Source: Lepus europaeus (taxonomy: Eukaryota; Chordata; Mammalia; Lagomorpha; Leporidae). From it: a stretch of 64,000 nucleotides of DNA. This document shows, piece by piece, positions 1 to 62,819 of the stretch. The DNA lies in NCBI RefSeq assembly GCF_033115175.1, contig NC_084827.1, positions 125,271,701-125,335,700 of the forward strand. The letters run 5' to 3'. The position numbers and the translations under genes are program-made. Position 1 is the stretch's first letter; each line of letters starts with the position of its first letter. The notes beneath the pieces were generated by a model. That model saw only the letters and a list, made by a program, of their open reading frames with translations, was not told where the DNA came from and did not search any database.

Positions 1-2440
1 TGATTTTCCTTCTTATAATTCAAAAACCATTGAGAAAAATAAAATATAAATATTGCCTCAAAATTTTATGTCTCTCTATAAAGCATCATCCTTATCAGAT
101 AACACTTTCCTGATCAGGTAGTACTGTCCCAAAGACTTGCAGAATTAGCTACACAGAACATAGTGGTTGAAAAATTGACAACCAAGGATTATAGTGGAGA
201 ATTATCTGAAGGGTACAAAGAGTTGTTTATAAATCACAGAAAAGAGTAAGTTCTTCACAATTTTAATAAAGCCTGGTGCTGCTCATTTTAGGATGAATAT
301 AAACCACCCATCTTCTTTCTACATGGAGGTGCTGTGAGATTTATGGTCTGGTTATTTCCATTGATTTTCCATATCAAATTCATAGAGTCATGCAATGATT
401 AAAAGGAAAGAAGATTAGTGACCTTATACCCTGTCTTCTCCTACCCAAGTGGAAGAACTGGGGCTCAAAAGTTTTCCAACCTCCATTTCCTTCATCTGCT
501 CCAAACATCTTTTACTTGCTCTGTGTGTATGTCTTCAAAAGTTTCTAATGATGTTTTCCATTAACAGAAAAATCAGAATTCTCCTTTCATGGGCCTTGGT
601 TTTATTGCTGTGCCCTTGCTTATGTAGTTTCTCCATTTACAGTCGACTGAACCAGGCAGTGGGGATGTCAAAGACATTCCAGGTGTCATCCAGACATCAC
701 TTTCTAGTAGGAGAAACTCATGTAAACAGAGAATAATTACTCTATTATCTAGTGCCATAGATTCATGAAAATTATGAATTGAAACATGTTCAAACACTAC
801 TTCTGTGCCTGTTGGTATTGCAGAAATTCCATTAAAATACATTTGAATAACAGAAAATATTTTAGTAGGTAATAAGTCCATGATGCATACTAAATAAAAT
901 TGATGAACTCAACAAACCAGAAATTTTTAGTGATTCTCTGAAGTCAAGAGCAGATACAAAAATCTTACTGGAGAAATCAGGAGAAAGAGAAATATAGTAT
1001 AAAAACTGTGGTAGGAGAAGGCGCTATATTGTCATTGCAGCACTTCCTAAGGGAGGAACAGAAACAACAGTCTCAGATTGAAAAAATAAATAAAAACTGG
1101 GGAGGGACATCTGGGAAAATTAATTAAAGTTTTTATTTTAATAAGTAGGACTCAAGGCTCCACCCTCATACCTGTATCTTTTGGCAGCAGCAGTGTTTGC
1201 TCCAGGATGAGTCCTGGAGGATTATTTGATAAACAAAGTGAGCTACCTCCCTAGGAGAGTTCCTAGTGCAGAGGTTGGGGCTGGAGATGAAGGGAAGCAG
1301 AGGCTGAGCTCACTCTGAAACTTCACATCCACAGTGAGGAAGGGGTGGGAAGGAGAATCACAGATTCTCTCTCACAGGACAAATTTGGGAGAAGAAGTGC
1401 ACTGAAGTTGAAATTTGGATGCAGGTTCCTCCTAGAGTGTGCAATGTACCAGTTAACTTCAACGCAACAAGCAGCAGGGTTGGGAAGCCCCTGGAATCTC
1501 AATAAAATTGTTTATGTGCCCTGCAGGTTTTTCCAACTTGACCCTCTAGCAGACATCCTCAAAAGGCTTCTGTATTCTGAATTTCTATTCACTGATAGAA
1601 AAAGGGGTTCTCCTTTGTTCTGATGAAATACATTCTAACAATCCTTTTTATTAAAGCTGCTCAATCAGAAATATAAATAGTAGCCCCACCCTCAAGCTTA
1701 TTGAGGAAATTTTGGATGAAAATGAGTCATTCAAAATATTGAAAAAAATCCAAAGAGTTTTTGAGCAACATGAATAGAAAAACACTACCCACACTTAGAC
1801 ACACCCTAAAGTAATTTAAGAAAGTCGAAGATAAAATAAAATCCTAAAAGTTTCTCTGATGAATAAATTTTCTCTCAGCTAAAATCAGTAACTGGATACA
1901 AGTTGACAGTGGAGAAATATTAAAGCTCTGAAGAGCATTGAGTCACTTAGGTGGGAGGATGAAAAAACAGTCATGTTTAGTAATGCAAAGATTTAGAAAG
2001 CTTAGTACTTATGAGTCATTCCTAAAAAGTTTTCTTGAAGAATAAACTTCAGTAAGACAGAGAATGACTCCACAACAGAGAAGTGTGATATAGGAATTAC
2101 AATGGGAAAATAAAAGTTGATTTCACCATTGCAAGTGAGTGAAGATATGGGAAAGGAACATCTTGTTTGTTTGGAGGTGAATGTAGACAACGGATGTGTA
2201 TTCACCTATTACATTAACTATTAATATAATTAATATTTGTAATAGGGCAAAAAGCAACATGTAAAAATTGTTTTGTGAAATTCCGGAGAATGAAGCATCA
2301 AGTCACCTGGATTATTGTGAGCAGACATTTCAGCCAAGGGGACATTTGAACGTAGTCCTAAAGGTAGAGGTGTTAGGGAGAAGTGGTGGGCTGGAAGGAT
2401 GCTCAAAGCAAAGTGATTGCAAGTACAAATGCTTGGATTC
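1..2440. other. Unique AT-rich DNA, no gene recognised
   Basis: I see no repeat with intact ends and no credible coding frame here. The longest open frames are about 90-100 codons, overlap on opposite strands, and show no recognisable protein motif. Confidence 0.6.
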
Positions 2441-2454
2441 TCTTCAACACTCCA

Positions 2455-2522
2455 GGAGTGAACCAGTAGATGGGAGTGTGGAATGTATGCTCTCTCTTTT
2501 TCTGTCTCTCAAAAACAGAAGA
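2455..2522 (+). mobile_element. Possible CSINE 3' remnant
   Basis: The stretch reads like the end of a CSINE: a GGAGTGAACCAGTAGATGG block followed by a CT-rich tract. The head and middle are not recognisable, so this is either a decayed fragment or chance resemblance. Confidence 0.35.
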
Positions 2523-2649
2523 AATCATTAATCAAGGAAAGGAAATTGGAACCAATGTTTAGAGTTGATTGAAAGCATGTATGTACTCTTTATCATCTTT
2601 CCCCTGCCTTAATCACAGAGAAGCTGTAAAAGATAAAATAACACGCAGA

Positions 2650-2976
2650 ATGAGCTGGGTATTGTGGCACAGTGGGTGGAACTGATGCTTGCATCCCAGT
2701 TAAGAGTGCTTGGGATTGAATCCCCTCTTCTGCTTCAGATCCAGCTTCCACTAATGCTCATCCTTGGGAGGCAGCAGATGTTGCCTCCAGTGTTTCAGTG
2801 CCTGCCACAAGCATGGGAGATCTGGATGGACTGTCTGGCTCCTGGCTTCAGCCTGCACCAGCCATGGTTGTTGTGGCCATCTGGGGAATGGGCCAGCAGA
2901 TGGAAAGATGGAAGGTCCTCTTTTTCTCCCTCTCACTCTCCCTCTGTCTTTCAAATAAAAATAAATTAATTTAAAA
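2650..2976 (+). mobile_element. CSINE, old diverged copy
   Basis: A tRNA-derived head with a degraded A box (GTGGCACAGTGGGTGG) is followed by the conserved middle (CTCCTGGCTTCAGCC), the CCATCTGGGGAATG block, a CT-rich tract and an AATAAA-rich tail. Divergence from nearby copies is high, so it is an older member. The open frames over it on both strands are translations of the SINE. Confidence 0.85.
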
Positions 2977-3148
2977 ATAACATATAGAACTTGCACTATG
3001 AGACTATTTATTGCTTACTATTTGTCTGTGTTACCTAAATTTCAAATTGAATTCCATGGAGTGTATTTGTAGTTATAAATGTTTAAGAGAAGCTAGTATT
3101 AAAATATTTCACTGAACAACCACAAATATAACAAAAAATCTTTTCTGG

Positions 3149-3149
<1 letters not shown>

Positions 3150-3189
<40 letters not shown>
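3150..3189. repeat. Homopolymer T, about 40 nt
   Basis: An uninterrupted T run of about 40 nt lies in unique DNA. No SINE or L1 body adjoins it on either side. It could be an orphan minus-strand poly(A) tail or a sequencing length artefact. Confidence 0.9.
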
Positions 3190-3191
<2 letters not shown>

Positions 3192-3333
3192 GTGATCATA
3201 GAACTCAGATTCTGACTTTGTCACAACTTGTAATTAGAAAAGATTGTAGTAATGCTCCTTGCATAAAGATTTGGTTTCTATTCTGAGACAGGATTTTTCT
3301 AGATAAATCTAAAGTATCTAATGTCAATCTTTT

Positions 3334-3630
3334 TTTTTTTTTTTTGACAGGCAGAGTTAGACAGTAAGAGAGAGGCAGAGAGAAAGGTTCACCCCCAAAA
3401 TGGCCACTACGGCCGGCACGCTGCGCTGATCCGAAGCCAGGAGCCAGGCGCATCCTCCTGGTCTCCCATGCGGGTGCAGGGCCCAAGCACTTGGGCCATC
3501 CTCCCCGGCCCTCCCGGGCCACAGCAGAGAGCTGGACTGGAAGAGGAACAACAGGGACAGAACCGCCACCCCACCCGGAACTGTGGGCGCCGCAGGCGGA
3601 GGATTAGCCTAGTGAGCTGCGGCGCCAGCC
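3334..3630 (-). mobile_element. CSINE, young copy with perfect TSD
   Basis: On the minus strand this runs from the tRNA-like head (at the 3630 end) to a T-run representing the poly(A) tail (at 3334). It is flanked by the perfect direct repeat TCTAATGTCAATCTTTT at 3317-3333 and 3631-3647. High CpG retention (several CCGGCG-type sites) and the exact duplication indicate a recent L1-mediated insertion. Confidence 0.95.
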
Positions 3631-3909
3631 TCTAATGTCAATCTTTTAGGAGGAGAAGACCCTTCCTGTTATTTCTCTGGGAAACTTAGATTTTCCTATG
3701 CTGTCTTGGAGTTTTAAGAAACTATTTGAGAATGTCCGAACATGAAGGTGTGAACCAGGAGATGGACCAAATACCAGCCAAAGGTTGGAAGTTTGAGAAT
3801 AAATCAGAAATTTCACTGATCCCAGAGAAGATCAGAGTAGGCTGTCTTGGATTTATCTGATCTTCAACTTGGCTTACCTGAGTATCCTTTAAAAAGTTAG
3901 ATTCATTTT

Positions 3910-4283
3910 GGGGCAAGCACTGGGGTGCAGCAGGTAAAAGCTACTGCCTGCAGTGCCAGCACCCCATGTGGGTGCCGGTTTGAGTCCCGGCTTCTCCTCT
4001 TCTGATCCAGCTCTCTGCTAAAGCCTGGGAAATTTTAGTCCTGGGAAAGCATTAAAGATGGTGCAAGTTCTTGGGCCCCTGCACAAATGTGGGAGACTTG
4101 GAAGAAGCTCTGGGCTTTGGATCATGGATCAGCTCAGCTCTGAGTGTTAAGGCCGTTTAGGGAGTGAACCAGTGGATGGAAGACCTCTCTTCTCTCTCTC
4201 TCTCCCTTTCTCTCTCTCTCTCTCTTTCTCTGCCTCTACCTACCTCTCTGTAACTCTTTCAAATAAATAAATAAATCTTTTTT
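3910..4283 (+). mobile_element. CSINE, longer copy
   Basis: A full-length CSINE with A box, B box (GGTTTGAGTCCC), a CT-rich tract and an (AATA)n tail. A short internal duplication around CCTGGGAAA makes it longer than its neighbours. The imperfect TSD is AAAAAGTTAGAT before and AAAAAGTTACAT after. Another CSINE follows directly at 4298. Confidence 0.9.
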
Positions 4284-4297
4284 AAAAAGTTACATCC

Positions 4298-4633
4298 AGG
4301 GGCTGGCACCGTGGCTCACTTAGTTAATCCTCCGCATGTGGCTCCGACATCCCATATGGGTGCCAGGTTCTAGTCCCGGTTTCTCCTCTTTTAGTCCAGC
4401 TCTCTGCTGTGGTCTGGGATAGCAGCAGGGAATGGCCAAAGCCCTTGGGCCCCTGTACCCGTGTGGGAGACTTGGAAGAAGCTCCTGGCTCCTGGCTTTG
4501 AATCGGCACAGCTCCAGCCGTTGCAACCATCTGGGGAGTGAACCATCGAATGGAAGACCACTCTCTCTGTCTGCCTCTCCTCTCTCTGTGTAACTCTTTC
4601 AAATAAATAAATAAATCTTAAAAAAAAAAAAAA
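4298..4633 (+). mobile_element. CSINE, second of a tandem pair
   Basis: A full-length plus-strand CSINE whose head starts only about 14 bases after the tail of the preceding copy. The head, middle, CT tract and (AATA)n tail are all present. The insertion used the A-rich tail region of the first SINE as target, a common habit of L1-mobilised SINEs. Confidence 0.9.
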
Positions 4634-10540: not shown

Positions 10541-10839
10541 AGAAGTAATTTTCCATAATAGATTTGCTTACAAAGGCAGATAAGCCACAATGGCCCAGAC
10601 CTTTCCTCTCTATCCAGCCTTGACAAGTGCAGCCCAACTTGACTTCTTGGTGTACTTCAGCTCACAAGAGAGCAGCTTTCAGAGTGGTGTAGGCATTATT
10701 ACCGTTTTAATGGAGTGAAAAAAGGTTAACTGATCTTTGTGGCTCTCATTTGAACCCCCAAAATCATAACTATTGTTTCTTGAGTGCTAAATACATGTCC
10801 TTTTGCAGACAAGGAAAATGTGTATCAGAAAAGTGAGAG

Positions 10840-11353
10840 TTTTTTTTTTTTATTAAACTTTTATTTAATGAATATAAATTTCCAAAGTACAGCTTATGGG
10901 TTACAATGGCTTCCCCCTCCCAAAACTTCCCTCCCACCCACAACCCTCCCCTTTCCCGCTCCCTCTCCCCTTCCAATCACATCATGATTCATTTTCAATT
11001 CTCTTTATATACAAAAGATCAGTTTAGTATATATTAGGTAACGATTTCAACAGTTTGCCCCCATATGGCAACACAAAGTGAAAAAAAAATACTGTTGAAA
11101 TACTAGTTATAGCATTAAATAAGAGTGTACAGTACATTAAAGGCAGAGATCCTACATAATATTTTTTTTAAAAATTAATTAATTTTCTATGCCGTTTCCA
11201 ATTTAACACCAGGTTTTTTTTTTTTTCATTTCCAATTATCTTTATATACAGAAGATCGATTCAGTATATAATTAGTAAAGATCTCATCAGTTTGTACCCA
11301 CGCAGAAACACAAAGTGTAAAAATACTGTTTCAGTACTAGTTATAGCATCACT
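10840..11353 (-). mobile_element. L1 3' end, 5'-truncated, with perfect TSD
   Basis: This is the leporid L1 3'UTR on the minus strand. The poly(A) appears as a T-run at 10840-10850, followed by the complement of the terminal AATAAAAGTT module, the C-rich strand of the G-rich tract, and the upstream 3'UTR. The perfect 12-bp TSD GAAAAGTGAGAG lies at 10828-10839 and 11354-11365. The 3'UTR block ending in CTAGTTATAGCAT occurs twice, near 11000-11130 and 11228-11350, so this copy has a duplicated 3'UTR module. Confidence 0.93.
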
Positions 11354-13390: not shown

Positions 13391-14099
13391 ATTTTTTAAT
13401 TTTTTAAGGAATACAAATTTCATCAGTATAACTTTAGGAAATAGTTATTCTTGTCACCATACATGCCCTCCCACCCATACTTCCACCCTTCCTCCTCCTC
13501 CCTCTCCCCTTGCCAGTCCCACTGTCCATTAAGATTCCTTTTCAATTAACTTTGTACACAGAAGACCAACTCTATACTAAGTAAAGATGTCAATAATTTG
13601 CAAATGCACACACACAAACACAAAAAACTGCTTGAGAACAAGTTTTACAGTTAACTCTCATAATACAGCTCATCGAGGACAGAGGTCCTGCATGGGGAGT
13701 TAGTGCACAGTGACTCTTGTTAACTGAACACTTTACATCCTTATGTATGATGTCAGTGATCACCCACAACTCTGGAAATGAACAGCCTGGGCTATGGAAG
13801 CCTTTTGGGTCCACAAACTCTATCAGCAATTGGACAAAGCCATAAGCAAAGTGGAAGTTCTCTCCTCCCTTCGAGAAAAGTACATCTTTCTTTGATGGCC
13901 ACTTCTTTCCACTGGGTCTAACTCACAGAGATCCTTCACAAAGAACATTTTTTGCCATAGTATCTTGGCTTTCCATGCCTGAAATGCTCTCACGGGCTTT
14001 TCAGCCAGACCAGGAAGCCTTAAGGGTTGATTATGAGGTCAGAGTGTTACTTAAAGCAATTGTCATTCTATTAGTCTGCTCTGTGGACTGCTTCCCAAT
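13391..14099 (-). mobile_element. L1 3' end of an older subfamily, with TSD
   Basis: A minus-strand, 5'-truncated L1 of about 709 bp. It shows the C-rich complement of the G-rich 3'UTR tract (CTTCCTCCTCCTCCCTCTCC) and then 3'UTR parallel to the copy at 61948, including complements of AGAACTTCCACTTTG-like and CCAAGACACT-like blocks. The TSD AAGCTATCAGTA is perfect at 13379-13390 and 14100-14111. Its extreme 3' end differs from the younger copies here, suggesting an older lineage. Confidence 0.9.
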
Positions 14100-44828: not shown

Positions 44829-45755
44829 TTTTTTTTGAGGAAATAAACAAAATGTATTAGCCCAAGTAACCAAAAGAAGAAGAGAAAAGATAAATCAATG
44901 ACATTAGACATGAAAAAGGAAATGTAACAACAGATACCACAAAAATAAAAAGAATCATCAGAAATTACTACAAAGAGCTGTATGTCAACAAACTGGGAAA
45001 CCTGCAAGAAATGAATAGATTTCTAGACAAATATAAGCTACCTAAATTGATCCATGAAGTCACTGAAAACCTAAACAGACCCATAACCAAGACAGAAATT
45101 GAATCAGTAATAAAGACTGTCCCAAAAAAGAAAAGCCCAGGACTGGATGGATTCATTGCTGAATTCTACCAGACATTTAAAGAAGAACTAACTCCAATTC
45201 TTCTCAAGTTATTCAGAATAATTGAAAGTGAGGGAATCTTTGGAAATTCTTTCTACGGAGCCAATATCACCTTAATTCCTAAACCCAAAAAAGACACAAC
45301 AGAGAAAGAGACCTGCAGACCAATTTCTCTGATGAACATAGACACAAAAATCCTCAAGAAAATCCTAGCCAATTGAATGTATATTAATAATTTAAAAACC
45401 CAATTACTTGTTTTGGACAATTAGGTGCCAAACTCTTTCTTGCCTCATTTATTCATTAGACACATTTTTATTGTGCACTGTGTGGTGCTCACTCTGCCAG
45501 GTTCTGCCTGATCTTTTACCTTTTACCCTCTCATTTCTTGCCTTACCTCTACACTTACCCTTCCCTCCAGCAAAATTGAAACTTTCTCTGTTGTGTGGCA
45601 ATGTTCTTTCCCCACATCATGATCCCATATGCTGATTTAAGTTCATCCTATCTGGATTTTTATGGATATTCTAATAAATTCATTGGACAAAACCTTAAAA
45701 AAATAAAAAGAAAATTCTAGCCAATTGAATCCAACAATACATCAGAAAGATCATT
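44829..45755 (+). pseudogene. L1 ORF2 fragment (start of reverse transcriptase), broken
   Basis: The plus strand encodes an L1 ORF2 segment just before and within the start of the reverse transcriptase domain. In 45011-45376 an open frame shows [46 protein letters not shown] and [19 protein letters not shown], the hallmark first RT blocks. Stops and shifts lie upstream, and the catalytic YADD-type block is absent because the fragment ends earlier. A 329-bp retrocopy at 45379-45707 interrupts it. By comparison with typical L1 ORF2 it covers roughly residues 395-585. It is inverted relative to the 5' half of the same L1 type that follows. Confidence 0.9.
45379..45707 (+). mobile_element. Processed mRNA retrocopy (3'UTR fragment) inside L1 ORF2
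   Basis: A 329-bp insert splits the L1 fragment. It ends with an AATAAA signal (45673-45678) and an A-rich tail. The flanking 23-bp duplications at 45356-45378 and 45708-45730 (both beginning AAGAAAAT and ending TAGCCAATTGAAT) differ at one base. The inserted sequence is unique, non-SINE and non-L1, so it looks like a 5'-truncated copy of a cellular mRNA 3'UTR. The source gene was not identified. Confidence 0.88.
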
Positions 45756-46510
45756 CTGATAATTTTTTGATTTCTCGTGATTTCTTCTATGACCCACTGT
45801 TTATTCAGGAGAAATTTGTTTAGTCTCCATGTACTTGCATATGCTCTAGAGATTTCTGAGTTGCTGATTTCCAGCTTCATTGCGTTTTGTCCAAGAAGCT
45901 GCATGATATGATTTCAATTTTTTTGAATTTGCTGAGAATTGCTTTATGACATAGGGTGTGGTCAATCCTAGGGAAAGTTCCTTTGGTCTATTGTGTCAAT
46001 TAACTCTGCTGTTTCCTTTCTGATTTTCTGTCTGGTTGATCTGTCAATTACTGAAAGTGGGGTATTTTAATCCCCCATTACTATTGTATTTTAGTTTATG
46101 TCTCCCTTTAGATTCCTTAACATTTATTTTAAATAACCAGGTGCCCTTGTCATTAGCTGCATATACTTTTATAGTAGTTACATCTTCCTGTTGAATTGAT
46201 CCCTTAATCATTACATAGTGCCCTTCTTCATCTTCCTTAGTGGTTTTTGTCTTAAAGTCTATGTTGTTTTATATTAGTATGGTGACACCAGCTTTTTTGG
46301 TTTCTATTAGCATAGAATAATACCTTTTTCCATCCTTTCACTTTCAGTCTGCATGCATCTTTTTTGGTGAGATGTGTTTCTTGAAGGCAGCAAATATCTG
46401 GATTTTGTTTTTGAATCCATTTAGCCAGTCTGTGTCTGTTAACTGGAGAGTTGAGGCCATTTTCATTCAAGGTGACTATTGATTGATAAGTAGCACCTTT
46501 GCCTTGCCAT
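45756..46510 (-). pseudogene. L1 ORF2 endonuclease region, broken
   Basis: Minus strand. At the 46470 end the frame shows NENGLNSPVNRHRLAKWI and CCLQETHL, the N-terminal asparagine and QETH glutamate motifs of the L1 AP-type endonuclease. Frame disruptions follow. The last recognisable part (about 45780-45850) corresponds to ORF2 around residue 255-280, just past the endonuclease. The sequence then abuts the inverted RT fragment. Confidence 0.85.
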
Positions 46511-46569
46511 TTATCAAAAAAATATTCCTATTTTTACTTTGAATTTACTTAGTACTTTTACTGATAGAT

Positions 46570-47580
46570 TTTCTTATTTACCTTATTTCATAGTGATGAC
46601 CACATTTCTGTGTTTCTGTGTGCAGCACATCCATAAGCATTTTTTTAGGGCTGGATGGGTGGTGACAAATTCTTTCAATTTCTGTTTGTCATGGAATGCA
46701 TTTATTTCACTTTCATTCATAAATGACAGGTTTGCATGGTACTGTATTCTGGTATGAACGTTCTTTTCTCTTTAGACTTGGAATATATCTCGCCATTGAA
46801 TCCTAGCCTGTAGGGTTTCTGATGAGAAGTCTACTGTGAGTCTAATTGGAGATCATCTGAAGGTAATCTGTGTTTCTCTGTTGTACATTTTAGAATCTTT
46901 TCTTTATGTTTTACTGTGGAAAGTTTGATTATAATATGTTGTGGTGAAGATCTCTTCTGGTTGTATCTATTAGTAGTTCTATGTGTTTCCAGTACTTGAA
47001 TGTCCCTTTCTTTCTCCAAATCTGGGAAATTTTCTGTTATTTTTTCACTAAAAAGGCCTTCTAATCCTTTCTCTCTTTCCACACCTTTAGGAACTCCTAG
47101 ACACCAAAGTTGTGTCATTTGATAGTATCCTGTATATTTCCAACAGTGTGTTTTAGTTTTTAAATTTCTTCTTACTGCTTTTGGTTTGACTGTATATTTT
47201 CCTGGTCTTTGTCTTCTAAGTCAGATGTTCTTTCTTCTGCTTCACCAGTTCTGTTGTTAAGGCTTTCCACTGCATTTTTTAATTTGTTCTATTGAGTTCT
47301 TTATATCTAATATTTCATTTTGATTTCTCGTTAACATATCTTTTTTGTAGGAGAAATTTTCTTTCATGTCATGTACAGATTTCATTTGTTTGTGCATTTG
47401 CTTTGGATTACTTCTAAATAATCTCATGATCACTTTTTTGAATTCCATTTCTGGCATTTCTTCAATCTTATTATCTTCACAATCTAGTATTGAAATGTTG
47501 TGTTCTTTTGTGGGTGTCATGTTGTCTTCCTTGTTCTTGTTTCTTGAATTAGTGTGGTTCTTTTTGGCCTTTGTGGAGAT
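46570..47580 (-). pseudogene. L1 ORF1, decayed
   Basis: Pieces in shifted frames match the intact ORF1 at 53576-54613: KIEEMPEMEFKK near the N-terminus, RNQNEILDIKNSIEQ in the coiled coil, LGVPKGVEREKGLEGLFSE and HIIIKLSTVKHKEKILK in the RNA-binding domain, and VLHTETQK at the C-terminus. Multiple frameshifts and stops show it is old and non-functional. Confidence 0.88.
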
Positions 47581-48950
47581 ACTTGTTGATTTCTTTGTTG
47601 TTTTTTCACTGGTAGCTTTAATTTTTGTACTATGCTACTATAGATTAGTGGAGTTTTTGCTTTCAGGGACCATGTACAGGGGTGTGATGGGTGTGGCCAG
47701 GGAGTTCTGTTCAGTTCTCTGGTAAAGGGCATGTCCGAGGTGACACACCCAGGTTTGGTGTGCCAAATCCCTCTCTCTCTCTATTTTTAATAAGAGGAGA
47801 GGTTTGTTCTTGTCTGTTGGCATAGACTAATCTGAGCTCCTCTCCTCGAAGGAGTCCAGTGTCTGGGCACTAGCCCCAATGGGTATATTATTTGTCTGCT
47901 CTGCATAAGGACCACAAAAATTATCTGTGCAGTCCTTAGTGTAAGTTCAGATTCCCCAGCAATGTCTTTTACTAGGCAACCAGGGAGCCCTGAGCATATG
48001 GACCCTCCCATAGTAACTGCCCAAAGTCCCAGCCATACCCTGAGTCCTACCATGCAGCCTCAGTACTTTTACAGTCTCAGCACTCAAACCTCCCCCAGTT
48101 ACGAGCACCCAGCCCCTTGTCCTCCCACTTGGCTGTCTCCACTTGGCTGGTTGCTGGGCATGGACATGGGCTGGTGCAGCTATTATGGATGTCAAAATGG
48201 TGCCTGCTCTCTATCAGCTTGTTACATGATGCCATTGCAGGGTGATTGTGGAGAGAGAAACATGCCAACCATTTTGTTTTTCCTTCCCTAGTTTGGCAGG
48301 TACACTATCTCCCGTGGGACTCCAGCCAGATTCCCTCCAGGCTCTTCCTGCAGCTTTGTTGCCAGTGGCTTGGGCTGCTGCAGTCTGGTCTCACTGCACT
48401 ATTCAAGACTGGTGAAGAGGCTTTCGGCTGCTGGGGTCCTGAGTTGTGTGTGTTCATGCCCTTCACAAAGCTCCCACCGTATCCATCTGATTTGCATAGA
48501 ATTTCCTCTGCTGTTTTCTCTCTAACTCTTCCCTGAGACTGTATTCTTTCCACTTTTTAAAAACTATCTTCTTGGGGCCGGCGCTATGGCATAGCAGGTA
48601 AAGCTGCCACCTGTAACATCCCCTGTGGGTGCCAGTTCGAGTCCTGGCTGCTCCACTTCCAATCCAGATCTCTTCTGTAGCTGGGGAAGCAGAAGAAGAT
48701 GGCCCAAGGACTTGGGCCCCTGCACCCATGTAGGAGATCTGGAGGAAGCTCCTGGTTCCTGGCTTTGGATCAGCCCAGCTCTAGCCATTGGAGCCATTTG
48801 GGGAGTGAACCCAAAGACTTCTTTCTCTCTCTGCCTCTCCTTCTCTCTGTGTAACTCTGGCTTTCAAATAAATAAATAAATCTTTAAAAAAAAACTGTTT
48901 TCTCATAGACTAGAGAAACAAGCTCCCTCCCTACTCTGTCATCTTAATCC
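47581..48950 (-). mobile_element. L1 5'UTR (minus strand), with nested CSINE
   Basis: Upstream of the decayed ORF1 lies a long GC-richer leader ending at 48950. On the minus strand it begins GGATTAAGATGACAGAGTAGG, the usual start of a full-length L1 of this type. A plus-strand CSINE at 48574-48890 interrupts it. The 5' end is therefore complete even though the downstream half of the element is rearranged. Confidence 0.8.
48574..48890 (+). mobile_element. CSINE nested in L1 5'UTR
   Basis: Full-length plus-strand copy with CTATGGCATAGCAGG, GTTCGAGTCCTGG B box and (AATA)n tail. A few head bases before ACATCCC are missing. Imperfect TSD: AAAACTATCTTCTT (48560-48573) and AAAACTGTTTTCTC (48891-48904). 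Confidence 0.92.
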
Positions 48951-51500: not shown

Positions 51501-52555
51501 ATTTATTTATTTGTAAGAGAAAAGCAAGATTTATTTAAGGCAGAGACCTCCAGCCAGAGTGGCAAAAGGGAGTGGGGTGGGCTCCAAGAGGGAAAAATTC
51601 GAAGGGGCTGATAATATTGGGGTTTTTAAGCACAATTTTGGGGAAGGAAAAAAAAAACTTACCAGCTTGACATTCAGTTATAAGGCAAAGATATAACCCA
51701 TCAAAAGACCTGATATGTAATTTCATTTGCTGAGCAGTAGGATAGGTAACTTGTTTTTTACAGTAAACTGTGAGCTCAGAAGGATGGAGTCACCACTCCC
51801 TTGCTATTCTTATGATACAATTGGAAATTCCTAAGGAATGGGACAAGCACTTTTGGGCTTGCTAAAGATAACTTTTGGGGAAGAAAGAATTTTGCACCCT
51901 AAATTCCACTGGAGCCAACCTGACTCCTTACTTTCCCTCCCCTGAAGAATGGGCCCTAACTTCTGTTAGGGGTATGGGGAGATTACTGCTCTGGATTCTT
52001 CAATCAGAGTAGAGGCAGAGTTGGGAACAGCAGTCAAGATAGGAAATGCCCTCTCAAGAGGGGCGGGGGGGACGCAGTGCCAGCTTGCAGAAACTGCTTC
52101 CATCCGAGGTTTCAGGTGCATGGCCATCTAGAATTTCACTATTTCAGTCTGGTGAAATGAATTTAGCAAACAGATTAAATTAACAGGGTCTAAAACAAAG
52201 GACAGAGTCATTATTAGAGGACCTAAGAAAGGTGCTATCCAAACAATGAGAGTTTTCTCACTGAAAAGTAAATAGAAACCGACAAGAGGGACCTGATAAC
52301 AATCAGGTGAGCTAAGGACCTGGTAGGAGGCCTAGATCTATCTGTCTCTTCACATAGGGTGCCAAAAGAGACATCATTAAGAGAAGTATGAACCTCCTTA
52401 GGGAAAGCACCCTGTTGACTTCCATTACCTAGCTAGCCTAAAAGGAGAACTGGCCTGAATAGAAGGCAGGTGGCATCTCTAAAGGAAATTTACATTTGCA
52501 ATGTTGCTGACCCTACTTGGCTGTCCCCTCAACAGTGGTGGCTACTTTGGAAGCT
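51501..52555 (-). mobile_element. Class I ERV 3' fragment with LTR and A-rich tail
   Basis: On the minus strand the order is protease remnant (from 52555), env transmembrane remnant (about 52250-52100), a polypurine tract (complement of CCTTACTTTCCCTCCCCT at 51926-51943), and then an LTR-like region to 51513. The LTR has an AATAAA signal (complement at 51530-51535) and runs directly into A-rich AAATAAATAAAT. That ending suggests a poly(A) tail rather than a full LTR with U5. The coding parts carry stops and a large deletion joining protease to env. 52183-52555 is the inverted equivalent of 55919-56292. The 5' end is truncated. Confidence 0.75.
51513..51924 (-). repeat. ERV LTR-like segment (U3-R)
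   Basis: Lies downstream of the polypurine tract on the minus strand. It contains the AATAAA signal about 18 bases before the A-rich end, as expected for U3-R of a polyadenylated transcript. The canonical TG...CA ends and U5 are not evident. Confidence 0.5.
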
Positions 52556-52638
52556 GTATTTTGTTTATCTACACATAAGGACTAAGAAGGGAATAGAAGA
52601 TAGAATATCTAAAAGAAGTGCTTTCAAGAAATTGAGTT
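52556..52638. other. Unique flank between ERV fragment and composite L1
   Basis: About 80 bp that match neither the ERV fragment nor the composite element, so the two are separate insertions in neighbouring positions. Confidence 0.6.
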
Positions 52639-52652
52639 AGAAGACTGGAGCT

Positions 52653-53575
52653 GGGCAGAATAGGAAGGGAGCACATTGATAGTTCAGCAAGACACACAGG
52701 TTAATAAAAGTGGAGATACTGCAGGGTCAAGGAAGAGTAGGGGAAGAAACAGCAGCGGAAACTCTTCCGGAACTAGTGATTCACAGTGGACCTGCGTGGA
52801 GAGCGTGGGAGCCCAAGTTCGGGACACCAGCGGCAGACTCAACACACCAGCGCTGGAACGCGAGGTGAGCCGAACCTCAATAGCCCAAGACACCAGCGGG
52901 CAAGCAGAAAGAGGAGACTAGAGGGAACGAGGCTTGAAACTACGTGGGGAAAAGCTCACCAGGCTAACTAGAAGAGAGAGAGGAAAAAAAAAAAACTGAC
53001 TGATACGGACACGAGTTTCTCTCTCTCCACTCACCCCTCAAAGGCAAGCAAGACAAAGAGCAGGCGCCATTTTGGACATACGTCATAAGCAGGGCGACCT
53101 CAGGTCTGCACCAGTCCTGAGCCTAGCAGAAAAACCTGACTCTGTGGGGAGGGGTGAAATAACAGGAGATTAGCATCTAACTTGGCAACCCAGTGGGAGA
53201 CTGCAGGAGAATTGGAGCCCACACTGAGGGCAGCACAGATTCCCTGTGTGGTCCTTGGGAAAGAGCTTCCGATCTCTGGCTCCTGTGGGTATAACATTCG
53301 CCTGCTAACTACCTCCAATTACGTTCAGCTGTGTGGAATTACTTCCCTTTTGAATAAAAAAAAAAAAAGAAAGAAAGAAAGAAAGAGAGATTTACCACGC
53401 CTAACCTGGGAGTGTCATCTTTGACACACCCTCAACCCTGAGGAACCAAACACAGCTCTCAGTCCACACTTATCTCAAGCCTCTAAGGCTCCACCGAAAG
53501 CAGACAGTCCACTTAATATAGAGCCATAGTGTAACAAGAAAAAACACCACAGTGAAGAAACCAAATATCTCCAAC
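52653..53575 (+). promoter_or_regulatory. L1-type 5'UTR / internal promoter
   Basis: A 923-nt leader that is CpG-richer than its surroundings, as expected for an L1 internal promoter driving transcription from its own first base. A YY1-like CGCCATTTT (53065-53073) and a TACGTCA half-CRE (53079-53085) are visible. An A-run plus (GAAA)n occurs near 53357-53388. No upstream ATG-initiated frame looks coding. Promoter activity is inferred from family knowledge. Confidence 0.65.
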
Positions 53576-54613
53576 ATGCCAAACAACAAACGCAAAAACC
53601 GAGGTAACAAGAACAAGGAAGACACTATGACGCCCCCAAATGAAAAAGACACCCCAATTCAAGATTATGAAGATGATGAGATAGAAGAAATGCAAGAAGC
53701 AGATCTCAAAAAATTGATAAGAACATTAAGAAGTTCTCAAAAACAAATTCTTGAACTACAGAAATCCTTAATGGACAAGATAGAAAATCTCTCTCGTGAA
53801 AATGAAATATTAAGGAGGAATCAAAATGAAATGAAACAACTAGTAGAACATGAAACTATGATAGTGACAAAAAACCACAATGAAATGAAGAACTCAATAG
53901 ATCAAATGACAAACACATTAGAGAGCCTTAAAAACAGAATGGGCGAAGCAGAAGAGAGAATATCAGACTTAGAAGACAGAGAACAAGAAAGGAAACAGGC
54001 AAACCAAAGAAAAGAAGAAGAAATTAGAAATCTAAAAAATATTGTCGGGAATCTACAAGATACTATTAAAAAACCTAATATTCGGGTTCTAGGAGTCCCT
54101 GAAGGCATGGAGAGGAAGAAAGGATTAGAAGGCATTTTCAGTGAGATACTAGCAGAAAATTTCCCAGGTTTGGAGAAGGACAGAGGCATCTTAGTACAGG
54201 AAGCTCATAGAACCCCTAATAAACATGACCAAAAGAGATCCTCACCACGACATGTTGTAATCAAACTCACCACAGTGAAACATAAAGAAAAGATTCTAAA
54301 AGGTGCAAGAGAGAAATGTCAGATTACTCTCAGAGGATCTCCAATTAGACTCACAGCAGACTTCTCATCAGAAACCCTACAAGCTAGAAGGGAATGGCGA
54401 GACATAGCCCAGGTACTAAGAGAGAAAAACTGCCAGCCCAGAATATTATATCCTGCAAAGCTCTCATTTCTGAATGAAGGTGAAATTAAGACTTTTCATA
54501 GCAAACAGAAACTGAAAGAATTTGTTCCCACTCATCCTGCCCTGCAAAAGATGCTTAAAGATGTGTTACACACAGAAACACAGAAACATGGTCACCAATA
54601 TGAAAGAAGGTAA
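53576..54613 (+). CDS. L1 ORF1 protein, intact open frame
   Basis: An uninterrupted frame of 345 codons starts at the ATG at 53576 (MPNNKRK) and ends at TAA. An in-frame GTG 8 codons upstream is not needed. ORF1p is the RNA-binding, trimeric nucleic-acid chaperone that coats L1 RNA in cytoplasmic particles. Visible parts: a basic/acidic N-terminus (1-40), a long heptad-rich coiled coil (about 40-160, ending in a Glu/Arg/Lys-rich stretch), an RRM-type domain (about 167-250, starting NIRVLGVPEG and ending AREK), and a C-terminal domain (about 255-335, with SPIRLTADFSSETLQARREW and YPAKLSFLNEGEIK). Human ORF1p is 338 residues, so this is full length. It sits in an element without ORF2, making it the element's only protein. 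Confidence 0.93.
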   Translation: MPNNKRKNRGNKNKEDTMTPPNEKDTPIQDYEDDEIEEMQEADLKKLIRTLRSSQKQILELQKSLMDKIENLSRENEILRRNQNEMKQLVEHETMIVTKNHNEMKNSIDQMTNTLESLKNRMGEAEERISDLEDREQERKQANQRKEEEIRNLKNIVGNLQDTIKKPNIRVLGVPEGMERKKGLEGIFSEILAENFPGLEKDRGILVQEAHRTPNKHDQKRSSPRHVVIKLTTVKHKEKILKGAREKCQITLRGSPIRLTADFSSETLQARREWRDIAQVLREKNCQPRILYPAKLSFLNEGEIKTFHSKQKLKEFVPTHPALQKMLKDVLHTETQKHGHQYERR

Positions 54614-55560
54614 AGGAAGGAAACCTCACAGCAAAAGATCACAGGAAGCTCAATTTCTCTTTGACATAGAATTACACTCTGATGCTCTGTTAAAGCAATG
54701 TGTTAAAGTAATCTAAAAACAAAAAGCAATTCAAATCAATTGGCAATCTACAAAAAGAGTTAAAGATTTTAAAAGCTATTATTAAAATTGCTATATTGGT
54801 CTATTATGCTATGTTATATGTGTGTACATATTGTATGTCCACATAGGAAATTTTATTAAGAGTTTTATTTTAAATGGCTTATAGATAAGATTGTCCATAA
54901 ATTTAAGCTGCTAAAATCAATCAAAGATACATTTTAATTTGTGTGACCTGAATCTGTGTATCATGTTTTAAACTTGTTGGTAGAAAGAAACTAAAAACAT
55001 TTTATATGGTTGTGCTTAAGTTTACTGGTTAAACAAACTATACCATGTTAGATCTTTAAGAGGTGTTTTCAAATACAAGATTCTTAAAATTTATAGAAGG
55101 CATTGGACCTTCTGGTAAATGTTTTCTTAAGTTGTTATCTAATGGTTGAAACGGTTTGCTAAGTATTCATGTAATATTGCTATTGTCAGCAAGCGATCTA
55201 GGACTTGCTCCCTCATTTCTCTATTCTAAGCCCAACTTGTTCTTTCATTTCTCTATTCTCTTCAAGGTAGGAAACCAATTCTATTATGAAGGAATCTGTA
55301 GGACGTACAATTTAATCTTTAGACCTTATAAAAGAGATGGCTAACATTTTTCTGTAATAGCATAGCCAAAATAAGAACTTAAATAATAATCTCATAGCTA
55401 GATTCACTTCGCCATCAGCGAAGTATACAGTAAGTAGAAAAAACCTCCCTTTCAGACCAAAGGGAAAGAAAGTTTTAAAGTGAGAATATAATTTTCCTCA
55501 TGGGCATTGTCTACCTTAGAAAAACTACTACAGAACATACCTGTGACTATAGACTTGTAG
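54614..55560 (+). other. Unrecognised internal segment of the composite
   Basis: About 0.95 kb of AT-rich sequence occupies the place where ORF2 would start. I recognise neither ORF2, nor L1 3'UTR as in the copy at 61948, nor a retroviral motif. A perfect 7-bp-stem hairpin lies at 55406-55424. It could be untranslated ERV sequence, a captured mRNA 3'UTR, or element-specific 3'UTR. Confidence 0.6.
55406..55424 (+). other. Perfect small stem-loop
   Basis: ACTTCGC, CATCA loop, GCGAAGT: a 7-bp perfect stem with a 5-nt loop, inside the composite's unrecognised segment. Function unknown; it could be chance. Confidence 0.6.
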
Positions 55561-55582
55561 TTCAGGCCACCGAAGATTAGAG

Positions 55583-55920
55583 ATGGGACATGGGCACTCC
55601 CTTGACTTGCGTCCTCTGGTCTGCTTTAACACAAACCAGGAGGAAAAGAAAGCTAGGCATCAGAAGCAATGGGTGGCAGGCCTATTAATGGCTGATCTGT
55701 ACAGTGATTTGCCCTCAAGCAGACCCAACAGGCCAGTCCACTGCAGTGGCTTTCAAAGTGGTAAGCCTGGGCTTCAGCAGAAGTCAGCTTGTGAAGAGCC
55801 CTGGCAGCTCTGCCAAGAGTTGGATCACTGGAAATGGACCTGCCCTGGAGTCGAAGGATGCCCAGGTCAGAGCCACAGATCTTATTGGCTCTAAGCTGAA
55901 AAGCCCTTCACTCAGCCCAA
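55583..55920 (+). pseudogene. ERV gag nucleocapsid remnant (degenerate zinc knuckles)
   Basis: One frame carries the layout of two adjacent retroviral CCHC knuckles. The first is broken (FQSGKPGLQQ, with the second cysteine and the histidine replaced). The second keeps C-x4-H-x4-C (LCQELDHWKWTC, 55811-55843) but has lost its first cysteine. Two knuckles in this spacing, followed by protease-like sequence, fit a class I (gamma-like) ERV. It is non-functional, and no complete gag is present. Confidence 0.65.
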
Positions 55921-56292
55921 CTTCCAAAGTGACCACTGCAGCTGAGGGGACACCCAAGTAGGGTCAGCAACATTGCAGGCAGAACTGTAAATTTCTTGTT
56001 AGAGATGCCCCCTGCCTTTACCTGGCCAGCTCTCCTCCCAGGCCAGCCAAGTAATGAAAGTCAACAGAGTGCCTTCCCCTAGGAGGTTCACACCTCCCTT
56101 AGGATATACCCCATGTGAAGAGATAGATAGGTCTGGGCCTCTTAACTTACAAGGCCTAAAGCCCACCAGATTATTATCAAGCCCCTTCTATCAGGTTCTA
56201 TTTGCCTCTCAATCAGAAAACTTAATTGTAGCTTAGACAGCACCTTTCTTAGCTCCTCTAATAATGACTCTGTCCTTTGTTCTAGACCCTGT
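55919..56292 (+). pseudogene. ERV protease-to-env remnant, internally deleted
   Basis: The start resembles the region before and into a class I ERV protease: VNFLLEM occupies the place of the active-site strand, but the D-T-G catalytic triplet is missing. The end matches an env transmembrane tail (PLIMTLSFVLDP, about 56250-56290). Polymerase and most of env are absent, so pro and env are joined by deletion. The inverted copy at 52183-52555 has the same junction. Stops and shifts are present throughout. Confidence 0.62.
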
Positions 56293-56460
56293 CTAGCACA
56301 CTTGGGCCTCATTCCTTTGTAATCATAACCTCTACTCTACCACCAATGGCTCTACTCCCAACCTGTGTGTCCTGATGGTCCTCTTCCCCACTTAATGCTG
56401 TATAATTGTTCAAACCTGGTAAATGCCACTCTTAGGATCATTGGTTACTATCCTCACTCT
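56293..56460 (+). other. Junction between ERV segment and L1 3'UTR
   Basis: About 170 bp present in neither the neighbouring ERV fragment nor the L1 copy at 61948. Similarity to the ERV copy stops at 56292 and similarity to the L1 3'UTR starts near 56465. Confidence 0.55.
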
Positions 56461-56464
56461 GTCT

Positions 56465-56914
56465 TTTATGACCTTGTCTAAATATGATCAGAGTCGGCAA
56501 ACTTGGAAGGCTTCCATAGCCTTGGCAACTCATGACGACAGCATAGGGTGGTTACTGGCACCATAAACTAGAGTGTCAATTTGTTGGGTCAACAACAGGA
56601 GCCACTGTGCAGTTGCTCCTCATGTGGGATCTCTGTCCTTAATGTGCTGTACATTGTGATTTAATGCTATAACTAGTGCTCCAACAGTATGTTTCACTTT
56701 GTGTTTCTATGTGGGTGCAAACTGTTGAAATCTTTATACTAAATTGATCTTCTGTACATAAAGAGAATTGAAAATGAATCTTGATGTGAATGGGAGAGGG
56801 AGCGGGAGAGGGGAGGGTTGTGGGTGGGAGGGAAGTTATGGGAGGGGGAAGCCATTGTAATCCATAAGCTATACACTGAAAATTTATATTCATTAAATAA
56901 AAGTTAAAAAAAAA
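56465..56914 (+). mobile_element. L1 3'UTR and poly(A) of the composite
   Basis: Aligns with 62352-62819: ATGACCTTGTCTAAATATG, CTTCCATAGCCTTGGCAACTC, ATCTCTGTCCTTAATGTGCTG, the G-rich tract GGGAGGGTTGTGGGTGGGAGG, and the terminal ATTCATTAAATAAAAGTT before the A tail. It differs consistently from the other copy at several sites (for example GGCAAACTTGG against GGAGAACTCAA), suggesting a distinct 3'UTR lineage. Confidence 0.92.
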
Positions 56915-56928
56915 AGAAGACTGGAGCT

Positions 56929-61947: not shown

Positions 61948-62819
61948 CCAAGTGATGAATTTCTGTTCACAATTGATCATAATGATAGGACTAAGAGTCA
62001 AAGGGATCACACAAACAAGACTAGTGTCTTCAAATACTAACTGATAGAATAAAAAAATGAAGAGAACGATCCAACATGGGAAGCAGGATACACAGCAGAC
62101 TCATAGAATGGCAGATGTCCTAAACAGCACTCTGGCCTCAGAATCAGCCCTTAAGACATTCGGATCTGGCTGAAAAGCCAATGAGAGTATTTCAGGCATG
62201 GAAAGCCAAGACACTCTGGCAAAAAAAAAAAAACAAAAAAACAAAAAAAAAAACCTAAATGAAAGATCTCTGCGAGTGAGATCCCAGTGGAAAGAATGGG
62301 GCCATCAAAGAAGGAGGTACCTTTCTCTGAAGGGAGGAGAGAACTTCCACTTTGACTATGACCTTGTCTAAATATGTTCAGAGTCGGAGAACTCAAAAGG
62401 CTTCCATAGCCTTGGCAACTCATGACAAGAGCCTAGGGTGATTACAGATGCCATAAACAAGAGTGTCAAATTGTTAAGTCAACAACAGGAGTCACTGTGT
62501 ACTTACTCCTCATGTAGGATCTCTGTCCTTAATGTGCTGCACATTGTGATTTAATGCTATATCTAGTACTCAGACAGTATTTTACACTTTATGTTCTGTG
62601 TGGGTACAAACTGTTGAAATCTTTACTTAATATATGCTAAATTGATCTTCTGTATATAAAGATAATTGAAAATGAATCTTGATGTGAATGGAAGGGGAGA
62701 GGTAGCGGGAGATGGGAGGGTTGTGGGTGGGAGGGAAGTTATGGGGGGGGAGCCATTGTAATCCATAAGCTGTACTTTGGAAATTTATATTCATTAAATA
62801 AAAGTTTAAAAAAAAAAAA
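61948..62819 (+). mobile_element. L1 3' end, 5'-truncated, with TSD
   Basis: About 872 bp of leporid L1 3' region: CAAAGGGATCACACAAACAAG, ATGGCAGATGTCC, AAGCCAAGACACTCTGGC, an A-rich stretch, GAAAGATCTCTGCGAGTGAG, GGAGGTACC, GAACTTCCACTTTGAC, the G-rich tract and the terminal AATAAAAGTTT plus poly(A). The TSD TGACTACTG is exact at 61939-61947 and 62822-62830, and extends two bases further with one mismatch. ORF2 coding sequence is not included. Confidence 0.93.

What the first reader, a model, noticed from the sequence alone, without database searches (positions are those of the whole stretch)
52639..56928. ORF1-only L1 carrying an ERV-derived segment, inserted as one unit
A single perfect 14-bp TSD (AGAAGACTGGAGCT) encloses L1 5'UTR, intact ORF1, an unrecognised block, ERV gag/pro/env remnants and L1 3'UTR plus poly(A), with no ORF2. 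The fusion therefore predates this insertion, which makes it a mobile chimera rather than nested debris. Half-L1 elements are known. An ERV-derived interior in one is unusual, and may give the RNA new structure, splice sites or localisation signals.
Basis: partly seen in the sequence, partly recalled or inferred. Interest (0 to 1): 0.9.

Follow-up and report, generated by a model that had tools for sequence, protein, structure and literature searches.

The report
ORF1-only LINE-1 with retrovirus-like interior
This stretch is one of thousands of copies of a jumping element that keeps only the first gene of LINE-1, carries a borrowed repeat of probable retroviral origin in its middle, and probably spread by borrowing the missing LINE-1 enzyme.

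Summary
A perfect 14-nt target-site duplication encloses L1 5'UTR, an open 345-aa ORF1, about 1.8 kb of non-L1 sequence and L1 3'UTR with poly(A); no ORF2 was found. The chimera is not unique. In the window's own genome an exact 22-mer across the block/3'UTR junction occurs 9,394 times and a 27-mer across the L1/block junction 6,230 times; reversed controls 0. Of 21 copies read, 21 share the 3' junctions, and 14 have a target-site duplication of 13 nt or more, all different, against 1 of 420 mismatched flank pairs. This copy is internally deleted; the commonest form has about 840 nt more. ORF1 variants shared by copies are depleted in amino-acid changes (14 N:18 S against 87:40 for singletons). 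ERV origin is plausible but not shown: no retroviral Pfam match; gag/pro/env are not confirmed. Best reading: a HAL1-like, L1-dependent retrotransposon with a captured interior; a new variant of a known kind.

The parts
52639..52652 (+). 5' target-site duplication AGAAGACTGGAGCT
   Evidence: bottom-strand cut site reads TTCT/AA
52653..53575 (+). L1 5'UTR; lacks roughly the first 15 nt that full copies show before GCGGAATAGG (by eye)
   Evidence: full-length copies L023, L027, L032, L036 begin just upstream
53576..54613 (+). L1 ORF1, 345 aa, open
   Evidence: purifying-selection signal in shared variants
54614..54652 (+). L1 inter-ORF sequence after the ORF1 stop; L1 homology ends at about 54647-54653
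   Evidence: against eight L1 loci L057-L064; junction 27-mer 54643-54669 found 6,230 times
54653..54702 (+). short stretch at the 5' junction, source not settled; similarity to the older family may begin inside it
   Evidence: by eye
54703..56292 (+). interior segment colinear with an older dispersed repeat family of probable retroviral origin
   Evidence: 71-77% identity over the longer matches; no Pfam domain
54713..54715 (+). deletion join (CTA microhomology): about 840 nt of the long form are missing here
56293..56465 (+). about 173 nt of unknown source between the interior repeat and the L1 3'UTR
   Evidence: in 21 of 21 copies
56466..56905 (+). L1 3'UTR including a G-rich tract and AATAAA
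   Evidence: 86.7% to window 62357-62819; junction 22-mer found 9,394 times
56906..56914 (+). poly(A) tail, 9 A
56915..56928 (+). 3' target-site duplication AGAAGACTGGAGCT
51510..52556 (-). independent older copy of the interior repeat family just upstream of the insertion; not part of the mobile unit

Best explanation
A non-autonomous, L1-dependent retrotransposon of the half-L1 kind. Shown: one unit with L1 5'UTR, ORF1, a captured older repeat (probably retroviral), a short unplaced piece and L1 3'UTR is present in thousands of copies; those read carry the marks of L1 insertion (own target-site duplications, 5' truncations, inversions, A tails). Inferred: the L1 5'UTR promoter makes the RNA; the RNA encodes its own ORF1p, which coats it in cis; a complete L1 supplies ORF2p in trans through the shared L1 3'UTR and poly(A); target-primed reverse transcription inserts the copy. 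The interior stands in place of ORF2 and may be only a passenger that tolerates deletion: internally deleted forms have joins with little or no overlap, as template jumps would leave, and at least two of them seem to have amplified. The chimera probably arose once, by RNA-level joining (template switch, read-through or splicing).
For: Junctions shared by 21 of 21 (3') and 14 of 21 (5') copies. Exact junction counts 9,394 and 6,230, reversed control 0. TSD of 13 nt or more in 14 of 21 against 1 of 420 mispairings; 8 of 15 insertion sites inspected have a bottom-strand cut before AA (no control run). Inversions in L030, L037, L039, and 7 of 21 begin inside the block. Ten 3'-junction places not chosen by similarity: 8 of 10 lead upstream into the block or ORF1 and none was seen to lead into ORF2. 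Of 65 5'-junction places on C1, 33 have an exact 3' junction within 8 kb, at discrete spacings: 19 at 2637-2662, 7 at 2101-2107, 3 at 1809-1811, 4 others. ORF1: shared non-CpG variants 14 N:18 S against singletons 87:40, one-sided Fisher p=0.009; approximate omega 0.28 against 0.79. Thirteen chimera ORF1s group together, with none of 35 Oryctolagus ORF1 proteins inside the group (branch support not read).
Against: No transcript, protein or mobilisation data. The 20 fetched copies were chosen by similarity to the window copy, which favours young, similar copies. ORF1 is open in only 4 of 13 near-full copies, and two stop codons are shared by two copies each (codon 275 in L021 and L029, codon 9 in L034 and L037), from recurrent CpG change or from passing on a broken ORF1. 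No young complete L1 partner was retrieved; that search did not complete. The selection test rests on 13 copies and could be affected by exchange with complete L1s. Six of 21 copies gave no TSD of 12 nt or more.
Confidence: 0.87

Rival explanations
1. Nested debris: separate insertions of L1 and ERV pieces that happen to lie together at this locus.
For: The 5' flank holds an older copy of the same interior repeat (51510-52556, minus strand), so the area is repeat-rich.
Against: The same joins recur at thousands of places, and in the copies read with different TSDs.
Confidence: 0.01
2. Deletion derivative of a complete L1 whose 3'UTR had already captured the repeat: ORF2 was lost later, so the ORF1-to-block join is an ordinary ORF2 deletion.
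For: HAL1 elements are described as L1 derivatives that arose several times (PMC5753468, passage). The L1 parts are in L1 order.
Against: None of 20 sampled junction places (10 for each junction, on one contig) was seen to lead to ORF2. Limits: the comparison set held only about the first 1.7 kb of ORF2 and no ORF2 end, and one 3'-junction place stayed unmatched at -900 and five at -2.9 kb. None of the 14 copies read across the 5' junction has ORF2 there. An ancestor extinct or rare today is not excluded.
Confidence: 0.2
3. The ORF1 signal is not selection on the chimera: ORF1 is a passenger that is refreshed by recombination or gene conversion with complete L1s.
For: The L1 5' half of the window copy is more diverged from the long-form copy L036 (94.5%) than the rest (96.9%). 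Two stops are shared by pairs of copies.
Against: The 13 chimera ORF1s group apart from the 35 rabbit ORF1 proteins, though complete L1s of this genome were not in that tree; shared changes are depleted in N relative to singletons from the same copies.
Confidence: 0.2
4. The interior is not retroviral but another host repeat or non-coding transcript.
For: No retroviral Pfam match in 11 fragments of the element and 8 of older copies; no protein relative.
Against: Six of 12 older copies end shortly after an AATAAATCT[CT]GCTTT-type block in an A-rich tail, as a transcript polyadenylated in a retroviral R region would; zinc-knuckle-like and protease-like residues are visible by eye (recalled pattern).
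Confidence: 0.3

Closest known systems
HAL1 (half-L1) retrotransposons
   Same: L1 ORF1 only, poly(A), TSDs, dependence on complete L1s in trans (passages of PMC5322556 and PMC5753468; Bao and Jurka 2010 itself is not held)
   Different: Here about 1.8-2.7 kb of foreign sequence stands where ORF2 would be. Exact 3'-junction count is 9,394, against nearly 2,100 HAL1 copies stated for human (PMC5322556 passage).
SVA / LAVA composite retrotransposons
   Same: Composite of unrelated repeats (in SVA with a retrovirus-derived SINE-R; origin recalled), mobilised by L1 in trans with need for ORF1p (PMC7353768 abstract and passages)
   Different: SVA and LAVA are specific to hominoid primates and carry VNTR/Alu parts and no ORF1 (the last recalled); this element has L1 5'UTR, ORF1 and L1 3'UTR.
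LINE-1 chimeric insertions with other RNAs (Law and Burns 2026, PMC13174262)
   Same: L1 RNA joined to another RNA and inserted as one unit (abstract and passages)
   Different: As far as abstract and passages show, those are catalogued as individual insertions of the human lineage; this one is a large family with its own copies of the join.
L1-mobilised ERV transcripts such as HERV-W processed pseudogenes
   Same: Part of the older interior family looks like polyadenylated retrovirus-like transcripts with A-rich tails; HERV-W case from the start of the abstract of PMC5537654 in the listing
   Different: Source ERV not identified here, and no TSD was found around the one older copy tested; the chimera uses only part of that transcript, inside L1 ends.

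Membership tests
HAL1 (half-L1) | encodes L1 ORF1p | tested here: met
   open in 4 of 13 near-full copies, the window copy among them
HAL1 (half-L1) | no ORF2 | tested here: met
   window element; none of 20 sampled junction places was seen to lead to ORF2, with the limits named under the rivals
HAL1 (half-L1) | poly(A) tail and TSDs | tested here: met
   TSD of 12 nt or more in 15 of 21
HAL1 (half-L1) | body derived from L1 only, without foreign interior | tested here: inconclusive
   interior is not L1, but whether pure L1 origin is a defining feature could not be read (Bao and Jurka 2010 not held)
HAL1 (half-L1) | relation to a named HAL1 family | not testable with these tools
   no repeat library at hand
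SVA-type composite | non-coding composite with VNTR | tested here: not met
   ORF1 present; only one weak array of 1.9 copies, within ORF1
ERV provirus | LTRs and retroviral genes | tested here: not met
   no long terminal repeats, only the 14-nt TSD at the ends; no retroviral Pfam match
L1-mediated (TPRT) insertion | TSD, A tail, 5' truncation/inversion, T-rich/AA cut site | tested here: met

The most novel reading that the evidence does not exclude
The captured retrovirus-like interior is a cis-acting RNA module (export, stability, packaging or translation) kept by selection in source elements. An ORF1-plus-viral-module element would then be a separate strategy of L1 parasitism: it brings its own ORF1p and a viral RNA signal and needs only ORF2p. 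A hint, not a test: the ratio of shared to singleton non-CpG variants is 41:190 in the interior against 18:40 at ORF1 synonymous sites and 31:94 in the 5'UTR, but the L1 3'UTR (13:64) is equally low and the copies were chosen by interior similarity. Against it: the interior tolerates several internal deletions.
Probability: 0.13. Interest if true: 0.8.

Novelty: new variant of a known kind. Interest (0 to 1): 0.57.

Why it matters
It shows that an L1 derivative without ORF2 and with another repeat in its place can still become a large mobile family of a mammalian genome. If the 6,230 copies with the 5' junction run on to the tail, they alone hold about 18 Mb, roughly 0.6% of the 2.93-Gb assembly (inference). 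Because ORF1 seems conserved in source copies, the family allows a direct test of why half-L1s keep ORF1: cis-binding of ORF1p against mere youth. Its discrete deletion forms give natural experiments on which interior parts mobility needs.

Tried and rejected
Nested debris rejected. Splicing as the cause of the internal deletions rejected for the four joins examined: no GT-AG; short or no overlap at the joins. Splicing remains possible for the 56292 join: the older family has GT there in 8 of 12 copies, but no acceptor or source was found. Pfam, PDB and protein searches with interior fragments gave no retroviral match. Rfam on the element: only a sub-threshold CPEB3-ribozyme-like hit at 55757-55832 and a sub-threshold sRNA hit, taken as chance. 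The possibility that the 3' junction word belongs to ordinary L1 3'UTRs was tested by sampling upstream sequence at 10 places and rejected for 8 of them; one has an L1 3'UTR upstream and one is unmatched. Young complete L1s, a count of the short-form join, and LTRs of the older family were sought, but the genome search did not complete. Literature: Bao and Jurka 2010 not held. Ten paper searches were answered (two searches were rejected for a too short term). Their listings show no L1-ORF1/ERV chimera in a lagomorph; most subscription papers and repeat libraries were out of reach, so it may be catalogued there.
Full report
What is in the sequence. The unit 52653-56914 lies between two exact copies of AGAAGACTGGAGCT. 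It holds L1 5'UTR, an ORF1 of 345 aa from 53576 to 54613 with both L1 ORF1 Pfam domains and LINE-1 ORF1p as nearest solved structures, a non-L1 interior, and an L1 3'UTR from about 56466 with nine A. Other L1 sequences in the window match the ends: 46539-48574 on the minus strand (two pieces) for the 5'UTR and ORF1, and stretches at 62357-62819, 13392-13845 and 10838-11349 for the 3'UTR.

Where the L1 parts end. Eight L1 loci were fetched, one of them the window's own L1. In 8 of 8 the match to the chimera that comes nearest the junction ends at 1987-1993 of the long form, which is window 54647-54653. The L1s printed in readable orientation (L058, L061, and the window's L1) go on into the sequence before ORF2; the chimera does not.

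The interior. The 5' flank of the insertion holds an inverted, 76-77% identical copy of 55918-56292. A genome search with that copy gave 3,470 first-look candidates (chimera copies may be among them), 40 of them scored, at 79-82% identity apart from itself. In two of four older copies with extended flanks the match to the chimera's long form is colinear from about 2043 to 4478, that is from window 54703 to 56292 (71-73%); the other two matches are shorter. So the 'unrecognised block' and the 'ERV' piece are one segment. The older copies continue past the point where the chimera departs. A probe for their polyadenylation block, five substitutions allowed, matches in 8 of 12; in 6 of these an A-rich tail follows at once, L051 has a changed AATAAA and no clear tail, and L045 reads like a different LTR. 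This fits transcripts polyadenylated in a retroviral R region and copied by L1. Against it, no TSD of 8 nt or more was found around the one older copy tested, that of the window. Retroviral genes were not confirmed: 11 fragments (3 from the window interior, 1 across the ORF1 end, 7 from copy L035) and 8 from older copies gave no retroviral Pfam match, one gave no PDB match, one found no protein relative. Zinc-knuckle-like and protease-like residues are seen only by eye.

The family. A search with 55583-56000 gave 1,833 candidates; of the 40 scored, one is the window itself and 39 are 98-99% identical. With the window copy that makes 21. All 21 carry the 55560, 56292 and 56466 points within an alignment; 14 of 21 carry the L1/block junction and the other 7 begin inside the block. 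Inversions occur in L030, L037 and L039. A flanking repeat of 12 nt or more is found in 15 of 21, of 13 nt or more in 14 of 21; among 420 mismatched flank pairs 2 reach 12 and 1 reaches 13 (with the 5' ends of L024, L031 and L039 corrected). These repeats all differ. The inferred cut lies before AA in 8 of 15 copies listed (no control).

Counts over the whole genome. The 22-mer across 56466 occurs 9,394 times, the 27-mer across the L1/block junction 6,230 times; the reversed patterns occur 0 times. To see whether these words are specific to the chimera I sampled places from the position-ordered lists, not by similarity, all on one contig. Of 10 3'-junction places, 7 have the block and 1 has ORF1 about 900 nt upstream, 1 has an L1 3'UTR and 1 has no match; about 2.9 kb upstream 4 of 10 have ORF1 (one at its start), 1 has only a repeat-like match that looks like a SINE by eye, and 5 have no match. 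Of 10 5'-junction places without an exact 3' partner, 9 have the block 400 nt downstream and 1 an inverted L1 3' end. None of the 20 was seen to lead to ORF2, but the comparison set held only about the first 1.7 kb of ORF2 and no ORF2 end, so the unmatched pieces are not fully cleared.

Long and short forms. Of the 15 copies that reach this point, 8 span the middle of the stretch of about 840 nt that the window copy lacks, 4 share the window-type deletion with CTA at the join (window, L021, L029, L030), and L032, L033 and L034 have other deletions of 552, 728 and 1,607 nt. None of the four joins has GT-AG borders. On C1, 33 of the 65 5'-junction places that lie within the range of the listed 3'-junction places have an exact 3' junction within 8 kb: 19 at 2637-2662, 7 at 2101-2107, 3 at 1809-1811 and 4 at single distances. 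The 2.1-kb and 1.8-kb classes match the L032-type and window-type deletions in length, so at least two deleted forms seem to have amplified.

Age. Over 55534-56880 the 21 copies differ on average by 3.1% (2.2% outside CpG), with terminal branches of about 0.6-2.7%. The set is biased to copies close to the window copy. With a mammalian neutral rate of about 2.2e-9 per site per year (recalled) this is roughly 5 million years. None of 35 Oryctolagus ORF1 proteins falls within the group of 13 chimera ORF1s (tree read by eye, support not read); the best identities to the window protein are 92-93%. A rabbit-hare split about 12 million years ago is stated in PMC5568218 (passages). A leporid other than Oryctolagus and an expansion after that split are plausible, not shown.

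Does ORF1 matter? In 13 near-full copies, non-CpG variants shared by two or more copies are 14 amino-acid-changing and 18 silent; singletons are 87 and 40, stops counted as changing (one-sided Fisher p=0.009). Against a site-by-site expectation of 73% changing, shared variants give an approximate omega of 0.28 (p=0.0004) and singletons 0.79 (p=0.23). With CpG included the counts are 25:27 shared and 103:53 single. Source elements thus seem to keep ORF1p, as expected if ORF1p helps its own RNA. Against it: ORF1 is open in only 4 of 13 (window, L032, L033, L036), and two stops are shared by two copies each.

How it most likely works. Shown: a single structure, present at thousands of sites, with the marks of L1 insertion in the copies read. 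Inferred: transcription from the L1 5'UTR, ORF1p in cis, ORF2p in trans from complete L1s through the common 3'UTR and poly(A). How the join arose is open. The chimera departs from the older family at GACCCT|GT, where GT is present in 8 of 12 older copies, so a spliced transcript is possible at that point; the 173 nt that follow have no known source.

Comparison. Features of HAL1 that I could read (ORF1 only, poly(A), TSDs; passages of PMC5322556 and PMC5753468) are met. The foreign interior sets it apart. SVA and LAVA are composites mobilised by L1 with need for ORF1p (PMC7353768, abstract and passages). L1-RNA chimeras are catalogued in PMC13174262 (abstract and passages). The listings of the ten paper searches show no such element in lagomorphs; PMC3183009 (passages) lists HAL1 families for guinea pig and marmoset and none for rabbit among families under 1% divergent.

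Noticed in passing
window 51510-52556 (-); L042-L052: Large older repeat family (3,470 first-look candidates); 6 of 12 copies end in an AATAAATCT[CT]GCTTT-type block plus A-rich tail: probable L1-copied transcripts of a retrovirus-like source.
   Followed up: partly
L032, L033, L034, L021, L029, L030: Four different internal deletions of the chimera; two spacing classes that match them recur on contig C1.
   Followed up: partly
window 55757-55832 (+): Sub-threshold Rfam match to the CPEB3 ribozyme (18.6 bits, gathering 35), inside the interior repeat; probably chance.
   Followed up: no
L036 7000-7068 (-): SNORD30 snoRNA match (74 bits) in the flank of one chimera copy.
   Followed up: no
window 44900-48574 (-): Older L1 with ORF1 and the start of ORF2, then what looks like a piece of ORF2 in the other direction (by eye).
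   Followed up: no
window 56293-56465: 173 nt present in 21 of 21 copies with no source found; the older family has a splice-donor-like GT where this segment begins in 8 of 12 copies.
   Followed up: partly
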